Of a stretch of 64,000 bases of DNA, positions 6,998 to 20,661 are shown one piece after another (positions within the stretch are counted from its first letter, which is position 1; the number at the start of each line of letters is the position of its first letter). The notes beneath the pieces are model-generated. The model had not been told where the DNA came from and searched no databases. It saw only the letters and a program-made list of their open reading frames with translations. The translations under genes were made by a program, and so were the position numbers. The stretch is from a methanogenic archaeon ISO4-H5 (GTDB lineage Archaea; Thermoplasmatota; Thermoplasmata; Methanomassiliicoccales; Methanomethylophilaceae), in assembly GCA_001560915.1 (NCBI GenBank), contig CP014214.1, positions 558,001 to 622,000 of the forward strand, in the 5' to 3' direction.

Positions 6998-8014
6998 ATG
7001 ATGTTTAAAACGGAATCCCTCAACAGAATGGCCAGGGAGATCGGCGGTCTCGAATCCGATCTCACCGCAGCTCTGGACATTCCTAGTGGTATCACAAAGT
7101 CATACAAGCACATCATGATCTGCGGAATGGGAGCGTCCGCCATCGGCGGAGCCCTCTACGTGGACTCCATGTACTACACCTCCAAGGTCAGCGTAGAGGT
7201 CGTCAAGACCATGAACCTGCCTGCCTGGGTCGACAACGATACCCTCTTCGTGGCATGCAGCTACTCCGGCAACACCTACGAGACCGTCCAGATGTACAAG
7301 GAGGCCATCACCAAAGGCATCGATGTCGTAGCCGTCACCCACGGCGGACAGCTCGAGGAGCTTTCTCGGCAGAACGGCAACCTCATGATGAAGATCGGAG
7401 GCGAGCTCATCCAGCCCCGTTCCGCCATCGGATGGTTCATCGGTCTCCTGGGAGGAATCATTCAGGACGCCGGCGGACCCTAGGTCAGGGAGCAGCTCAG
7501 GAAACTCCTGCCCCGCATCCGCGAGTACAACTACGAGTTCACCGCCGACGACAGTTACGCCAGGACCATTGCCCTCCGCATCAAAGGCAAGATCCCTGTG
7601 ATTTACGGAGCACCCAACCTCTCCGCCATGGCGCTGAGGATGAAGACCCAGCTCAACGAAAACTCCAAGGTAATTGCATTTTCCGGAGTGCTTCCCGAGT
7701 TCAACCACAACGAGATTGTCGGATGGTACGACGATGACCACAAGTACCAGTTCCACCCCGTCCTCATCGTCGACGATGACTACGAGGAAATCGCCAAAAT
7801 CATCAAGGCTACCAAGGGACTCCTCTCGAGCCGCGATGTCGGTCTCGATGTCTTCAAGGTCAAGGGCGATTCCGTCCTCGAGAAGAACATCTACGCGGTC
7901 ATGTTCGGAGACTACGTCTCCCTGTACCTCGCGGCCCTTCGCGAAGTGGACCCCTGCAACGTCGACCCTATTGTCGATATCAAAGCACGTATCAGAGCGG
8001 TGCTGCCGGAATGA
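6998..8014 (+). CDS. Bifunctional phosphoglucose/phosphomannose isomerase with an in-frame TAG
   Basis: 338 codons including TAG at 7481-7483 (codon 162). Both sides are one SIS-domain isomerase in one frame: HIMICGMGASAIGGAL and FVACSYSGNTYET before the TAG, and KGKIPVIYGAPNLSAMA, LPEFNHNEIVGW and the C-terminal sugar-binding half after it. The combined length fits the archaeal PGI/PMI family, which interconverts fructose-6-phosphate with glucose- and mannose-6-phosphate. The TAG follows IIQDAGGP and is followed by VREQLRKLL, with no frameshift. Either UAG is decoded (pyrrolysine) or this is a nonsense mutation. Base composition matches the core genome, unlike the AT-rich operon before it. 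Its 3' end is duplicated at 12230 and 18638, which makes it the likely insertion site of the island. Confidence 0.8.
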
Positions 8015-11191: not shown

Positions 11192-12129
11192 ATGGGGAAA
11201 TATGATTATTCTGGATTCACTGGCGATGGTTGGAAGGATAGTCTAACCGATATGCACTTCTGGGGATTGCATCATATCGATGGAAAAATCGAGGTGGACG
11301 TTGATAGGTTCATTGCTGCCAGCGAACAGATTTCCATATTGGACTTTGTTCCCGATGAATTCTCCAACGGGAAGATAAAGGGATACTATATTCCGACGAA
11401 GGAGCATAGGTGGGATTATATCTGTAACTATCTGATAGATATGCTTGAAGATCTGAAAAGTAAGTGGAGAACCGAATACAAGCCACTTTTCAGGAAGATC
11501 ACCACTCCGTCCCAAGTGGAACATGATAGCTACCTCAATCAGATAGCATTCTTAAGCGATTCCGACATGTATGATGAATGCGAAATCCAAGCTAGAATTG
11601 ACGGAATAAAAAGAATCCCTGAGTATGAACGTATCCTCAATGAGATGTACTGCATGTTCATCTCGAAAATCTGTTGTGAGATTGACCGTTATTTGGTAAA
11701 AGCCATTGCCCTATGTGGTTACACGGGGAAATATTTCGATCGTAACCGTTTGCAAAGTTCTGCAAAAGAAAAAACAGTGCAATCGCTTTGGAAGAACTCG
11801 AGGGACACAAGGCATTCACCGATTTGCATAATGTCAACAACTTCATCAAACACTGTACCGTGAGCTGTTTTAATACATTGGTCGAGGCATCTCCCGATTG
11901 TCTTCGGTGTAGGGAAGGTTATGAGAACGGTATGTATCCCGGAGATTGGCTCGATTTCAAGGAAGCAGACATAGACCGTTTTCTTTCCGAAATGACCCAG
12001 TTTTTCAACGGTCTTTGTTCAAAGGTTTTTGGAGAGGATGTCAAAGCTGCGAAATGGGATTATGAGGACTATTTTACAGATGCTTTTAAGGAATTACAGA
12101 ATCCTTATGAGTACCGTGGTCTTCCTTGA
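11192..12129 (+). pseudogene. Unknown protein split by a one-base frameshift
   Basis: One protein of about 312 residues is read in two frames. The first runs from ATG 11192 to about 11770 (MGKYDYSGFTGDGWKDSLTD...ALCGYTGKYFDRNR). The second continues to TGA 12129 (SAIALEELEGHKAFTDLHNVNNFIKH...EYRGLP). The switch falls in the A-rich run AAAAGAAAAAACAG at about 11764-11777; one extra A would restore a single frame. The second part has a helical, Cys-containing segment (SPDCLRCREGYENGMYPGDW) and looks conserved rather than decayed, so a very recent mutation, programmed slippage or sequencing error are all possible. I do not recognise the family. It sits between the DUF262-HEPN pair and a pgi fragment. 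Confidence 0.6.
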
Positions 12130-14421: not shown

Positions 14422-14568
14422 CCTGACCTCGCCACCAGAAGCAATTGAACATTGATTTTTTTTTACTTTGGGACCGAAAGCAAAAAGTGTCCCGGCCGGA
14501 ATGTTCAGTTGTGACACAAAAACGCTTAACGACTGGGACGGAACTTCCCAGTCCGAACGAGAATATAT
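14422..14568 (+). repeat. Structured transposon-end repeat, copy 1
   Basis: Matches 33762-33906 over about 147 bp and then diverges abruptly after GAACGAGAATATAT. Two stems are conserved: GGGAC...GTCCC around an A-rich loop, and GACTGGGA / TCCCAGTC around CGGAACT. In copy 2 the last pair of the second stem is a G-T wobble, so pairing is kept. A conserved structured right end followed by unique sequence is what omega-RNA / right ends of TnpB elements look like. No tnpB remains here. Confidence 0.65.
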
Positions 14569-14570
14569 CA

Positions 14571-15079
14571 GTTCCGACGGGGCTCGTAAAAACAATCGAA
14601 CATTATCTCGGTTCGACGGGTGTTTTGGACTTTGTTGATACCTTCAAGCAACGGGGAGTAGCGATGAGCAGGATCCTCGTAGCCATGTGCACGCACATCC
14701 TCATGGGTAGCAATTCCATGAGCAGATGTTCCGATTGGCTGAAGAACAGGGATGTGAGGAAGGAACTCCGATTGGATTCGGGTTTGTCGCAGAGGACCAT
14801 CAACCGTGCTATTTCGCTCATAGGGGATCACAGCGGTGAGATCCTCGTGAGACTGTGGGAAGGGTTGGATTCGAGATATCATTTCGAGAATACCGATGTT
14901 ACATCGATGGTTCTGCCGTCGTTGTGAATGGCCCCGAAGCGGAGCTCGGGGCCGTGGGGTACCCAAGGGATTTCAGGGATCAGAGCAGGAAACAGGTGGA
15001 GTTCCTGACAGCGGAATTCCAGGAATCAAGGATCCCATTTTTCATGAGAGCATACAAAGGGGACACATCTGACCCTGAG
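14571..15079 (+). pseudogene. Remnant of a DDE transposase
   Basis: The first frame (14571 to about 14905) gives VPTGLVKTIEHYLGSTGVLD, then SRILVAMCTHILMGSNSMSR and LSQRTINRAISLIGDHSGE, typical of the N-terminal part of IS1634/IS4-like transposases. The match then shifts frame to IDGSAVVVNGPEAELGAVGY and FLTAEFQESRIPFFMRAYKG, which carries a plausible first DDE aspartate. The rest of the gene is missing. It starts right after the structured repeat at 14422-14568, so insertions have stacked here. Confidence 0.7.
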
Positions 15080-15122
15080 TGTGACGTATTTCCTCATATT
15101 CATACAATTATTTTTAAAGAAA

Positions 15123-15437
15123 GGCAATGTCTGGGAGTATATGGAGTAGTATAAGAATCTGCATGGGACCAGCAATATCTGCTATTATGAGATTGGTGAG
15201 AGTTATATCAAGGTAGCTTTCCAGAGGAAGGATACAAGCCTTCGTTTTGACTGTTATCTTTACGAAGAATCCTGCATAACCCCCGAGGTGCTTGATTTGT
15301 TGAAAGGAGCCGCGGTGAATGGATACAATCTTGGTCATTTTGTAAACACTTGCGCCAAGAAAAGGTATTCTGATAAGATCCTGCACAAATCCCTGGATGA
15401 ACTCAACTCCTTTAGTGGGAGACCCGTTCTGCGCTAA
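15123..15437 (+). pseudogene. KTSC-like fragment, possibly with an in-frame TAG
   Basis: In one frame the bases read GNVWEYME, TAG (15147-15149), then YKNLHGTSNICYYEIGESYI and on through CITPEVLDLLKGAAVNGYNL to a TAA at 15435. The second half resembles the short KTSC domain (extended strands, then a helix ending before a conserved aromatic). Only about 95 codons exist after the TAG and the upstream side runs into transposase debris, so this may be a truncated gene. The TAG could be a decoded amber, a stop of something else, or decay. Weak call. Confidence 0.35.
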
Positions 15438-15683: not shown

Positions 15684-16466
15684 ATGGCGATTCCTTTAGA
15701 AGTATTACAAAAATGGGCTAAACCTGGAAAGAACGAGATGTCCAAACAAACGTATCATGCATTACGGGATGTCTTGATCAGTAAATTGGGGTTACCCCAA
15801 TCAAGCATATATCTCCAGGGATCTTATGCCAATTCCACCAACGTCAGGGACAACAGCGACATAGACATCGTAGTAGAGTTCCCTCCGGAATACGATGTAA
15901 GATCTCTGAAGAATTATGTCTACAACCGTATACAGAATGCGAATAATTTCCAGTTCTCCTTGGGTTCCAAGACTGTCAAGTATAAGGGATACCGGAACCA
16001 ATACGTCCCTGCGGACATCGTTCCCTGTGTAACCGTTGCCAATAAACAGGATTGTGTGAAGATCTACGATTCCTCCCGCAGTACAGTCATCGAGAATCAT
16101 CCGAAAGTTCATATCAGGAACGGTGAGAACAAAAGCGGAAGGACCAGCGGTAATTCCAAGAAAGCGGTCAGGATGCTTAAGAACGCCCGGAACTATTTGG
16201 AAGACAAAGGGTACAAGATCGGGATTTCCTCATACACCATTGAATGTATGGTATACAATATTCCTGATGGTGAATTCGTAGGCAATGAATACGATGTATG
16301 TTATCACATCTTGAACTGGCTGTGTAATAACAAAATATCTCTTTCATCTATGAAAACCCAGGATGGAAAAGACCTCCTCTTTTACACGGGGGACCGTTCT
16401 ACCAATACTGCCTCTTTATTCATAAACGACCTTGTCAATCTATGGAACAATTGGGGCAAATTTTGA
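15684..16466 (+). CDS. CD-NTase (cGAS/DncV-like nucleotidyltransferase) 1
   Basis: 260 residues. The nucleotidyltransferase active site is intact: SIYLQGSYANSTNV with GS at 46-47, then DNSDIDIVVEF with both metal aspartates (59 and 61), and a third acidic residue in VPADIVPCV (111). This is the signature of the CD-NTase family, which makes cyclic di- or trinucleotides on phage infection. ATG 15684 is chosen for the SD-like GGGAG about 6 bases before it. It overlaps a paralogous second CD-NTase, which is followed by a Cap15 effector, so this is a CBASS operon. The product nucleotide cannot be told from sequence. Confidence 0.85.
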   Translation: MAIPLEVLQKWAKPGKNEMSKQTYHALRDVLISKLGLPQSSIYLQGSYANSTNVRDNSDIDIVVEFPPEYDVRSLKNYVYNRIQNANNFQFSLGSKTVKYKGYRNQYVPADIVPCVTVANKQDCVKIYDSSRSTVIENHPKVHIRNGENKSGRTSGNSKKAVRMLKNARNYLEDKGYKIGISSYTIECMVYNIPDGEFVGNEYDVCYHILNWLCNNKISLSSMKTQDGKDLLFYTGDRSTNTASLFINDLVNLWNNWGKF

Positions 16467-17269
16467 TGATTTCAGACGGGCAGCTCATCGAATGGTCACA
16501 ATCAGGAAAGAGTGAGTCCGAGCCCAACGCATACAACCGTTTCAAAGATGTGATCCGGGCATGTTTCGACGTCGAAGACATATTCCTGCAGGGTTCGTAC
16601 GCCAACTCCACGGAGGTGTTCAGCAGCAGCGACATAGATATCGTCGTTGTGTGCAGGGGCCCGGAATACGGTTCGTATGGCTGGGAATCCCGCCTCAAGC
16701 GTCTGAAATACCATCTTTACAACTCGATAGAGAACTATCATAATTTCCGCTTCGAGATGGGGAAGAAGACCATAAAGTACAGTGGCTCATCAAAATATGC
16801 CCCTACTGATATCCTTCCGTGCATCAGTTTTACCAACAGAAACGGGGATCAGGGGATAGTATTCTACGATCACAGGAACCATAGATTGGTATTCAACTAT
16901 CCCAAACAGCACAAGGCTAATGGGATTGCCAAGAACGAACGGACTGGCGGGGATTTTAAACGGATTGTACGTGTCTTCAAGAATCTCCGTGATTCGCTGA
17001 TTGAGGACGGACTTATTCGCTATAACCTGGCCCCATCATACTTTCTTGAATGTTTGCTATACAACGTGCCTGACTACTGCTACACATCATACATCACAGA
17101 CAGTTTCATTAATATCATTAGTTGGCTCCAGAAGAACAAAGCACTCCTTCCGCAAATGAAATGCCAAAACGGTATCCAATCGCTGTTCAACGGATACAGC
17201 GGCTGGGATCTCGGCAACTGTTATATGTTTCTTGATGCGATTGAGAATGAGGTACGTTACGATGCATAA
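16466..17269 (+). CDS. CD-NTase (cGAS/DncV-like nucleotidyltransferase) 2
   Basis: 267 residues, clearly paralogous to the gene before it (shared LQGSYANST, SDIDIVV, and P-x-DI-x-PC-x motifs). GS at 43-44, Asp 56 and 58, and Asp 115 in APTDILPCI are intact, so it should be active. ATG 16466 aligns with the paralog's N terminus and overlaps its TGA by one base; an ATG at 16442 in the same frame would add 8 residues. Two intact CD-NTases in tandem feeding one Cap15 gene is unusual. They may form a heteromer, make different products, or respond to different triggers. Confidence 0.85.
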   Translation: MISDGQLIEWSQSGKSESEPNAYNRFKDVIRACFDVEDIFLQGSYANSTEVFSSSDIDIVVVCRGPEYGSYGWESRLKRLKYHLYNSIENYHNFRFEMGKKTIKYSGSSKYAPTDILPCISFTNRNGDQGIVFYDHRNHRLVFNYPKQHKANGIAKNERTGGDFKRIVRVFKNLRDSLIEDGLIRYNLAPSYFLECLLYNVPDYCYTSYITDSFINIISWLQKNKALLPQMKCQNGIQSLFNGYSGWDLGNCYMFLDAIENEVRYDA

Positions 17270-17837
17270 GTATAGCTGCGATAACGACAGAAGGGATTAC
17301 GTTTCCGCGGTCACGATGTTGATATGCATAATTGTATCGTACCTGATATCCGACGCTATCGCAGCCTATGTCGCAAATAATGATTTCTTTGTGAAAATAC
17401 TCATTTTTATAGTTATTGTGGGTCCGTTTACGCTATGGACATATCTTGCAGACGGCCTTTCGGCATTATTTCTGAAGGCCTCTGGGATAAGGAATTGCAC
17501 CGGGGAATATACAGGCACTCTGAAATCTAGCTATGATTCCTTTGAAAGGAACTATAATGTAACGGTAAAAATCGTTCATAAATTCAGGAATATCGAGATC
17601 AGGCTCGACACAAGTACCAGCACATCACGCAGTGTTACCGCATCTCTCCGTCAGGACGGTGAGCGGGTCGAATTAATCTACACTTACGAAAATGATGGTT
17701 CCATAGAGATGGGCCTCAATAGGCACATAGGTACGGGGATTATAACCATTGAAAGCTAGATGGTTAAGGGCATCTACTACACTCATCCTGACCGCGGAAC
17801 TTCGGGAACGTTCGAGTTAAAATTCAAGCCAAATTAA
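17262..17837 (+). CDS. cap15: Cap15-type CBASS effector with an in-frame TAG
   Basis: 191 codons including TAG at 17757-17759 (codon 166). Two membrane helices (about 15-38 and 43-62) are followed by a beta-barrel: GEYTGTLKSSYDSF, then VKIVHKFRNIEIRLDTSTST and VELIYTYENDG, with HIGTGIITIES leading to the TAG. The frame stays open after the TAG for 25 codons (MVKGIYYTHPDRGTSGTFEL, then KFKPN) to TAA 17837. This tail has the G-x-Y-Y-T...R-x-T-x-G-x-x-x-L pattern expected of the last strands of Cap15 barrels. Cap15 senses a cyclic nucleotide and disrupts the inner membrane. ATG 17262 is chosen over in-frame upstream starts because GAGGT lies 8 bases before it; it overlaps the CD-NTase stop. Termination at TAG would remove the final strands. 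Confidence 0.82.
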
Positions 17838-17894
17838 GAGAGTACAGTCAAAACCAGCTCGGATCATCCAAAAATGTAGCTCCTTTTGGATAGG

Positions 17895-17950: not shown

Positions 17951-18496
17951 ATGACCGTTCGCAAATCCTTCGATAGTTACGTAAGCATAGACCTGGAATT
18001 CAGCGGCTATTGGGATTCCAAGGAGACACCGCTGAATGAAAGGAAATGCTCCATCATCGAGATCGGTGCGGTCAGGTTCATCGATGGAGACTAGACCACC
18101 TTATCGACCGATGTACGGCTGCTTCCAGGCCGGCGTTTTCAGGAATGGATTATACAGAATCATCATAAGGATCCTGCGAGGTATGAGAACGCAACGTATC
18201 CGAAGGATGCCCTGACGGAACTGTTCGATTTCGTGGGGAATCTCCCCATCCTTGGACAGGACTTCGTTAACAACGACCTTTTCATGATAAATGACCATTT
18301 GGAAGCTCTAGGTATGGACAAATGGGAACCGGCAGATATTCAGGATCTTCTGGATTGGTCGGGTCGTAAAGGCCTGGAAAAGGTGGCAAAAGAACTTGGA
18401 TTGGATTATGGGGATAGACACGATGCCCTCGAGGATGCCTGCATTACTCAACAGGCATATGAGATTTACAAAAAGAGATGTGATTCTTCCATCTAA
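17951..18496 (+). CDS. DnaQ-like (DEDD) 3'-5' exonuclease with an in-frame TAG
   Basis: 181 codons including TAG at 18092-18094 (codon 48). Exo I is before the TAG (YVSIDLEFSG, with the D-x-E pair, then SIIEIGAVRFIDGD). After it come TTLSTDVRLLPGRRFQEW, an Exo II-like segment (LGQDFVNNDLFMINDH) and Exo III (DRHDALEDACITQQAYE). All three motifs are needed for catalysis and are split by the TAG, with no frameshift between. The TAG falls in the strand-turn-strand after Exo I, a tolerant position. It is 113 bp downstream of cap15 and may be a CBASS-associated or independent nuclease gene. Exo II is unusual, having Q where H is common. Confidence 0.78.
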
Positions 18497-18805: not shown

Positions 18806-20661
18806 TCAATGATTTCCTGAAATCATGTACTTTTGCCTGACCTCGCTGCAGCTAGTTCAGCGGCCGTACGTCTTTTCCTCGGTCTGGTGTCCTTGGACCC
18901 TGGCGGGCGTCCGCGTCTGCGCGGACCCTCCTGCGGGATGATGTTCTTCACTCCGTACCTCTCCACCATGTCCGGTTCGGTGACAGCTCCTACTCTCACA
19001 TAGAGCTTCATATCCTTTCCTGCGGTGGTGCGGTATTCCCACTCGCCATCCCCTTCCCTTATCTTCACACAGTCGCAAAGGTCCGAAAGAACATCCTTGA
19101 ACGATCTGTTCCTGCAGAAATCGAATTTTGCAAGGTGATTCCTCAGCCTTGCGGACATCAGCGTTGCCAGATAGTTGACGAACTCGCTCCCTATCGTCGT
19201 CTCATCGGATTTCTCCCTGGTGTCGTCGATCTCCAATCCCGTCTTGTGCAGTTTGAACAGAGGTTCGATTCCCCATCTGTCATCGTAACAGTCGTATGCG
19301 AAATCCGGTTCCATCTTCTGATCCGATTGCAATATGAGAACTCCGAACCATCTCCGTTCTGCTTCGAGCAGAACGGGATCCAGATTCCCTGCGTTCTGTT
19401 CAAGATACTCGCTTTCCATCTCTGCCGCTATCTTCGGACTTTTGAAAGAATACAGCCAATAGCCCAGACCCTCTCCGTTCTTGCCTTTTGCCTCGGATCT
19501 CTTGCAGCTTACCGGACCGTCATCCCTCATCATCACCGTATCGAAAGAGAAACATCCCGACCTCTCGGCCACCAGACGCCCCTTCATCAGAGGAACAAGA
19601 TAGTGGAGACCCTCATGTTCCTCCGCCACCCTTTTCATCACCTCGGGTCTGAAACCCCTGTCTGCGACCATGATCCCTTCGCGTATCTTGAGACGTTTCA
19701 CGAAATCCTCCACAGCCACTGCATCGGTGACATTCCCGGGATATACCTTGGAGCAGAGAGGTTCCCCTTCCAGAGGGCTGTATGCATACATCATCAGATG
19801 GTGGCACACCTTGGTTGCGGAAGTCTTCCTTGAGGCCTTGGATATGGAGAGATTATCACCGTTATCCTGCTTCAGACATCCGTCTATGACCACCAGATCA
19901 TCCTCGGATATCTTTCCCAAACGGGAGATCATGAACTTCTCGGTGGTCACGAACTGTTCACCCAGAAGGGTGAACATCTCCGTGACGTGATCCTTGTTCA
20001 TTGTCACACCGGGATAGAATTCGGAAACGAACGAGTGTATGTATCTCGCTCTGAGTTTGCAGTCAGGGATTCCTGGGTAGGAGGCTCTCAGCAGTGCTGT
20101 GCAGTATATCCATTCAGCATCCCTGTAGTGGTAGAACTCCTCCAGATCGGTGAGGATATTCTTGCACAGGATATTCAGGAGATTGATTGCACCGAACTGT
20201 TTCGATTCTATCCTTCCGATGGATTTCAGTTCCACTTCCTGTCTGATCGGATGGTATGAATCGGTGATGTATCCTATCACCTGGTTCTTCCTGAACCTGA
20301 TGTTCCCTTTGCCGTCGATGATATCGACCCGCGTCCTGACTGCGTATTTGCCGGATTGATACGGTTCTACGACTGTACGTGCAGGTCTTTCTATCCCCCT
20401 GATCTCCTTCGGCACCCTCATATCCTTCGATTATATAATATGGTACATTAATATAAAAATATTTCTTATAATGTACTTTTGGACATATGAAAAACACCCT
20501 TTCAGGCATAAATCCCGGGAATTATAGCGAGAAAACTGCCGCCAAATGGTCAAATTGGCGAATTATAAAGTTTGGACTCGATACTAATCAGCATCAAACA
20601 GGGTGGCCAGATCAAAAAGTCTGAGCCTCGGAAAAAGTACATGATTTCAGGAAATCATTGA
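18806..20661 (-). mobile_element. Complete DDE insertion sequence with 29-bp inverted repeats
   Basis: Perfect 29-bp terminal inverted repeats are at 18806-18834 and 20633-20661 (tips TCAATGATTTCCTG / CAGGAAATCATTGA). A 4-bp direct repeat CGGA flanks the element at 18802-18805 and 20662-20665, probably the target duplication. The 1856-bp element encodes one intact transposase. Perfect ends and an intact gene suggest recent insertion. It landed just beyond the stop of the Pycsar effector gene. Confidence 0.88.
18823..20421 (-). CDS. DDE transposase with C-terminal AT-hook
   Basis: 532 residues. The DDE_Tnp_1-type core shows DDLVVIDGCLKQDNGDNLS as a candidate first aspartate, GIMVADRGFRPEVMK as the second, and a C-terminal DRWGIEPLFKLHKTGLEID for the glutamate, the usual IS4/IS1634 arrangement. 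The tail RRRGRPPGSKD is an AT-hook. The last codons lie inside the terminal inverted repeat. Intact length and clean ends suggest it is active. Exact IS family not determined. Confidence 0.85.
   Translation of the reverse strand: MRVPKEIRGIERPARTVVEPYQSGKYAVRTRVDIIDGKGNIRFRKNQVIGYITDSYHPIRQEVELKSIGRIESKQFGAINLLNILCKNILTDLEEFYHYRDAEWIYCTALLRASYPGIPDCKLRARYIHSFVSEFYPGVTMNKDHVTEMFTLLGEQFVTTEKFMISRLGKISEDDLVVIDGCLKQDNGDNLSISKASRKTSATKVCHHLMMYAYSPLEGEPLCSKVYPGNVTDAVAVEDFVKRLKIREGIMVADRGFRPEVMKRVAEEHEGLHYLVPLMKGRLVAERSGCFSFDTVMMRDDGPVSCKRSEAKGKNGEGLGYWLYSFKSPKIAAEMESEYLEQNAGNLDPVLLEAERRWFGVLILQSDQKMEPDFAYDCYDDRWGIEPLFKLHKTGLEIDDTREKSDETTIGSEFVNYLATLMSARLRNHLAKFDFCRNRSFKDVLSDLCDCVKIREGDGEWEYRTTAGKDMKLYVRVGAVTEPDMVERYGVKNIIPQEGPRRRGRPPGSKDTRPRKRRTAAELAAARSGKST

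What the first reader, a model, noticed from the sequence alone, without database searches (positions are those of the whole stretch)
17951..18496. Second in-frame UAG, splitting the exonuclease motifs of a DnaQ-like gene next to CBASS
Exo I lies before and Exo II/III after TAG 18092-18094, all in one frame with no other defect. A decayed gene would be expected to have collected frameshifts. Two neighbouring genes with the same kind of interruption point to UAG decoding rather than chance.
Basis: partly seen in the sequence, partly recalled or inferred. Interest (0 to 1): 0.75.

Follow-up and report, generated by a model that had tools for sequence, protein, structure and literature searches.

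The report
Exonuclease gene with readable UAG codon
A DNA/RNA-trimming enzyme gene in a rumen methane-making archaeon is interrupted by one UAG codon, which this organism most likely reads as the rare amino acid pyrrolysine; this is a modest extra example of something already reported for this genome.

Summary
Window 17951-18496 is one frame for a 181-residue DEDDh (DnaQ-like) exonuclease with a single in-frame TAG at 18092-18094. Exo I (D14, E16) lies before it; Exo II (D109) and Exo III (H157, D162) lie after it. The part after the TAG passes the Pfam RNase_T cut-off on its own. The genome matches rumen methanogen ISO4-H5 by size and by a listed gene. It carries pylS, pylC-like and tRNA-Pyl(CUA), and two mtmB genes with the canonical UAG. 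In sampled stretches, UAG ends only 3% of long frames, and nearly half of those continue as coding-like sequence. All six clean homology-supported interruptions are TAG. The neighbouring Cap15 effector has a similar TAG with conserved sequence beyond it, as does an isomerase in the window. In 78 homologs the TAG column is a variable polar position (R/E/K/Q). Best reading: UAG is decoded as pyrrolysine at a tolerant site and a full-length exonuclease is made. A recent nonsense mutation cannot be excluded, because no close homolog was found for a dN/dS test. In-frame amber genes (46) were already published for this genome, so this is a new member of a known kind.

The parts
17951..18496 (+). DEDDh (DnaQ/RNase_T-like) 3'-5' exonuclease frame, 181 residues if UAG is read, TAA at 18494-18496
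18092..18094 (+). in-frame TAG (codon 48) between Exo I and Exo II, in a variable polar loop column
17990..17998 (+). Exo I motif D14-L-E16
18275..18277 (+). Exo II aspartate D109
18419..18436 (+). Exo III motif H157 to D162
17265..17839 (+). Cap15-like CBASS effector frame with in-frame TAG at 17757-17759
16466..17269 (+). CD-NTase-like cyclase 2 (second ORF of the cassette), uninterrupted
15684..16466 (+). CD-NTase-like cyclase 1, uninterrupted
6998..8014 (+). bifunctional phosphoglucose/phosphomannose isomerase with in-frame TAG at 7481-7483 (same-window comparator; an amber gene of this product is listed as AR505_0560 in PMC5011839)

Best explanation
The frame is one gene for a DEDDh-type 3'-5' exonuclease. 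The host makes pyrrolysine and charges tRNA-Pyl(CUA) with it (inferred from genes found), so UAG 18092 is read as pyrrolysine at residue 48 and the full 181-residue enzyme is made (inferred, not shown). Residue 48 lies in a variable, polar turn between the second and third strands of the RNase H-like fold (strand assignment from the family, not from a model). It is not in the active site, so pyrrolysine probably substitutes for a Lys, Glu or Gln (AAG, GAG, CAG to TAG) and has no catalytic role. The same background explains the TAG in the neighbouring Cap15 effector.
For: One continuous family match spans the TAG, and the downstream half is recognised alone in the same frame. All five DEDDh residues are present. 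The TAG column in 78 homologs is R33/E14/K7/Q6 and other polar residues. The genome has PylS (E 3e-82), a PylC-like match, a tRNA-Pyl-like gene with anticodon CUA just upstream of pylS, and two mtmB genes with the canonical G-I-O-G-P-E-T site. In 1.26 Mb sampled, TAG ends 30 of 980 long frames; 14 of those 30 continue for at least 40 coding-like in-frame codons, against 81 of 950 for TGA/TAA (Fisher p 1e-7). Requiring at least 6 of 20 identities on both sides and best coding frame on both sides gives 6 TAG, 0 TGA and 0 TAA interruptions, against about 51% TAG expected from nonsense mutation. Cap15 keeps its conserved C-terminal residues after its TAG. Published: 46 in-frame amber genes and a complete pyl operon in ISO4-H5 (PMC5011839).
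Against: No proteomic or ribosome data. No close homolog found, so no dN/dS. The exonuclease is the least similar of 79 family members downstream of the TAG (55% of conserved columns kept, others 86% on average), although homologs were chosen by motifs upstream of the TAG. An intact, different DnaQ-like gene exists elsewhere in the genome (357274-357810), so loss could be tolerated. Both this gene and Cap15 sit in a low-GC region beside transposase genes, where decay is common. The 6:0:0 count alone gives only about p 0.02.
Confidence: 0.72

Rival explanations
1. Recent nonsense mutation: the gene is a young pseudogene and UAG terminates most or all translation here.
For: With 10-40 neutral substitutions since the mutation, no further stop is expected in 68-24% of cases. 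Downstream similarity to the family is unusually low. The gene lies beside transposase genes and fragments in a low-GC region.
Against: The genome avoids UAG as terminator, and UAG interruptions are selectively followed by coding sequence. If the low downstream similarity came from neutral drift, about 111 substitutions would be needed and only 5% of simulations keep the frame free of stops, before counting indels. The downstream half still scores above the Pfam cut-off with Exo II and III residues intact.
Confidence: 0.2
2. UAG is read through only partly, giving a mixture of a dead 47-residue peptide and some full-length enzyme, so that exonuclease and Cap15 output depends on pyrrolysine supply.
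For: Pyrrolysine insertion and release compete at UAG in principle; 16 of 30 TAG-ended long frames in the sample have no coding-like extension, so some UAGs may still act as stops.
Against: Nothing here shows regulation. The same kind of TAG sits in a housekeeping isomerase, which points to tolerated substitution rather than a defence switch.
Confidence: 0.06
3. Sequencing error at the TAG.
For: Single genome, no second strain available.
Against: Closed genome from 454 reads at 43.8x (PMC5011839), a method whose typical errors are homopolymer indels (own knowledge), not substitutions; three such TAGs in one window.
Confidence: 0.02

Closest known systems
In-frame amber (putative pyrrolysine) genes of Methanomassiliicoccales: 46 in ISO4-H5 (PMC5011839), 16 beyond the methylamine methyltransferases in 'Ca. 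M. alvus' (PMC4153887)
   Same: Single in-frame TAG inside a homology-supported gene of non-methylamine function, same organism and pyl machinery; defence genes (Cas3, Cas1) already among them
   Different: The passages read name neither a CBASS effector nor a DnaQ-like exonuclease; whether these two are among the 17 unnamed hypothetical genes could not be checked (supplement not readable here)
DEDDh 3'-5' exonucleases (RNase_T/DnaQ epsilon family, PF00929)
   Same: Exo I, II and III residues and overall profile match
   Different: About 30-35% identity to the nearest relatives, an 8-residue insertion between Exo I and the I-I-E-I-G motif, no canonical L-T-G-I motif, and a UAG codon
Cap18, the CBASS-associated 3'-5' exonuclease (named in PMC9122588)
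   Same: A predicted 3'-5' exonuclease encoded beside CBASS genes
   Different: No Cap18 chain appeared in a PDB sequence search to E 10; Cap18 is described from a CdnC/HORMA/TRIP13 operon, not a Cap15 cassette; the related Cap15 cassettes inspected lack an exonuclease
MtmB/MtbB/MttB methylamine methyltransferases
   Same: UAG decoded by the same tRNA-Pyl
   Different: There pyrrolysine is conserved and catalytic (established knowledge); here the site is variable and non-catalytic

Membership tests
DEDDh 3'-5' exonuclease (PF00929) | Profile match over the domain | tested here: met
   E 1.9e-11, profile 1-161/164; downstream half alone above cut-off
DEDDh 3'-5' exonuclease (PF00929) | Catalytic D, E (Exo I), D (Exo II), H and D (Exo III) | tested here: met
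   D14, E16, D109, H157, D162 in the alignment of 78 homologs
DEDDh 3'-5' exonuclease (PF00929) | Predicted fold matches known DEDDh structures | tested here: inconclusive
   Single-sequence model had mean pLDDT 34.9 and was not used
Pyrrolysine-encoded protein | Host has pylS, pyrrolysine biosynthesis and tRNA-Pyl(CUA) | tested here: met
   complete operon reported in PMC5011839
Pyrrolysine-encoded protein | Homology and frame continue across the UAG | tested here: met
Pyrrolysine-encoded protein | Pyrrolysine detected at the position, or full-length product | not testable with these tools
   needs mass spectrometry or Ribo-seq
Pyrrolysine-encoded protein | Purifying selection downstream of the UAG | tested here: inconclusive
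   no close homologs; downstream divergence high but no second stop or frameshift
CBASS with Cap15 effector | CD-NTase next to a 2TM Cap15 protein | tested here: met
   PADLOC cyclase and 2TM effector hits, Cap15_CD_rec; same pairing on plasmids
CBASS accessory exonuclease (Cap18) | Sequence similarity to Cap18 | tested here: not met
   no Cap18 chain at E up to 10 in a PDB sequence search; PADLOC gives the generic DEDDh model. Sequence search only, fold not compared
CBASS accessory exonuclease (Cap18) | Exonuclease conserved in related cassettes | tested here: not met
   five related plasmid Cap15 cassettes have no annotated exonuclease beside them

The most novel reading that the evidence does not exclude
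Pyrrolysine supply gates an abortive-infection system: both the Cap15 killer protein and the adjacent exonuclease need UAG decoding to be complete, so the defence would be armed only when the cell makes pyrrolysine, tying immunity to methylamine metabolism and limiting the system to hosts with pyl genes.
Probability: 0.05. Interest if true: 0.75.

Novelty: new member of a known kind. Interest (0 to 1): 0.3.

Why it matters
Automatic annotation that treats UAG as a stop would call a CBASS effector and an exonuclease broken in a pyl-bearing archaeon. If read through, they are probably intact, so defence inventories of such archaea may miss or misjudge genes. It also adds two cases where pyrrolysine sits at a tolerant, non-catalytic site.

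Tried and rejected
Close homologs of the exonuclease were sought by single-protein scans of GTDB contigs and viral contigs, tblastn of phages and plasmids, and family, order and phylum genome searches. They gave no close relative, only about 30-35% identity in the genus and, with an alignment, in Chloroflexota and Clostridia. The first interruption counts were swamped by antisense shadow frames and gene boundaries and were replaced by a six-frame coding filter. The single-sequence AlphaFold model was too poor to use. A downstream RNA signal was not pursued: one fold each was computed without control, and a review reports that no cis element was found or required for UAG recoding in E. coli (PMC8211752). 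The best adenylate kinase family match in the genome has no internal stop, so the amber adenylate kinase gene listed in the ISO4-H5 paper was not confirmed here.

Full report
What is there. Window 17951-18496 (+) is a single frame starting ATG and ending TAA, with one internal stop, TAG 18092-18094. Reading TAG as a residue gives 181 residues. Pfam assigns it to RNase_T (PF00929) from residue 11 to 167, and the PADLOC DEDDh model and PHROG 192 (DNA polymerase exonuclease subunit) agree. The two halves were then searched apart. The 133 residues after the TAG reach RNase_T at 29.1 bits, above the curated 24-bit cut-off, over profile positions 44-161; the 47 residues before it give only weak matches. 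So homology continues across the TAG in the same frame, which chance does not explain.

Active site. In an alignment with 78 homologs from other genomes, D14 and E16 (Exo I), D109 (Exo II) and H157 and D162 (Exo III) are conserved in 99-100% of members and present here. The TAG falls in a variable polar column: R 33, E 14, K 7, Q 6, T 4 and others. AAG, GAG and CAG are each one change from TAG. A conservative entry of pyrrolysine at a tolerant site is therefore plausible.

The genome. The window is part of a single 1,937,883-base contig, one base from the published size of methanogenic archaeon ISO4-H5 (1,937,882, PMC5011839). The match is supported by an isomerase gene with an in-frame TAG at window 7481, a product that the paper lists as an amber gene (AR505_0560; the correspondence is by product and rough position, inferred). 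The genome has PylS and a PylC-like match. A tRNA-Pyl-like sequence with a CUA anticodon lies just upstream of pylS; ARAGORN does not call it, and it was found by pattern and read by eye. Two mtmB genes have the canonical UAG. The paper reports a complete pyl operon and 46 genes with in-frame amber codons, including Cas3.

Is UAG a stop here? In 1.26 Mb of sampled stretches, 980 frames of at least 100 codons end in TGA 824, TAA 126 and TAG 30 times. Of the 30 TAG ends, 14 are followed by at least 40 open in-frame codons that look coding, against 81 of 950 for the others (Fisher p 1e-7); an earlier 864-kb sample gave 9 of 20 against 59 of 652. Part of this signal comes from genes in the pyl and methylamine stretch; without the three TAG-ended frames there the earlier sample still gave p 0.0035. 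By homology to two same-genus genomes, interruptions with at least 6 of 20 identities and best coding frame on both sides are 6 TAG, 0 TAA and 0 TGA; four weaker TGA cases fall below that identity level and look like gene ends or repeat proteins. Random nonsense mutation would give about 51% TAG from this codon usage, so 6 of 6 has a probability of about 0.02. The genome-level case for UAG decoding is good, and it is consistent with published reasoning about UAG avoidance in this order (PMC4153887).

The neighbour. The Cap15-like frame 17265-17836 carries TAG 17757. Cap15_CD_rec scores 69.2 bits read through and 49.7 bits up to the TAG. Aligned with five proteins at the Cap15 position of plasmid cassettes, the invariant G169, Y171 and G181 all lie beyond the TAG, which itself sits in a variable loop. 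The best solved relative is Cap15, 7N34. Both upstream cyclase-like genes are uninterrupted. Related plasmid cassettes pair a CD-NTase with a Cap15-sized protein, one of them with two tandem cyclases, and none of those inspected has an exonuclease beside it. In the order, Cap15 matches occur in only 5 of 147 genomes, no other member of the genus has one, and local GC is 40-47% against 54% for the genome, so horizontal acquisition is likely. The exonuclease is a neighbour of CBASS; membership is not shown.

What speaks against. No close homolog was found, so dN/dS could not be measured. Downstream of the TAG this protein keeps 55% of conserved columns, the lowest of 79, and its post-minus-pre similarity is almost the lowest as well. 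This could be drift. It could also be a divergent subfamily: the homologs were collected by motifs upstream of the TAG, which biases the comparison. A neutral simulation needs about 111 substitutions to reach that divergence and leaves no stop in 5% of runs, without counting indels. Long decay is therefore unlikely, but a recent nonsense mutation remains possible. An intact, different DnaQ-like gene elsewhere means this one may be dispensable.

Verdict. Observation confirmed; interpretation partly supported. Shown: frame, homology, catalytic residues, pyl genes, UAG statistics. Inferred: that UAG 18092 is translated, that the residue is pyrrolysine, and that the enzyme is active. The phenomenon is already reported for this genome; these genes are at most new named examples. 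From memory, not checked here: work from 2025 has argued that some archaea use TAG only for pyrrolysine, which would further lower novelty.

Noticed in passing
window 6998-8014: Housekeeping phosphoglucose/phosphomannose isomerase with in-frame TAG at 7481; homology and coding frame continue on both sides.
   Followed up: yes
window 11192-12129: Two overlapping frames (11192-11863 and 11788-12129) look like one gene split by a frameshift; could be decay or a 454 homopolymer error.
   Followed up: no
window 14445-15154: Transposase-like pieces in different frames, apparently a decayed insertion element just upstream of the CBASS genes; an intact transposase-like gene lies at 18823-20421 (-).
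   Followed up: no
L231:13894, L227:4262, L025:13808, L021:4811, L015:10703 (own genome): Further TAG interruptions with homology on both sides elsewhere in the genome.
   Followed up: partly
window 15684-17269: Two tandem CD-NTase-like genes before one Cap15; the same tandem arrangement is seen on a Halomarina plasmid (L125).
   Followed up: partly
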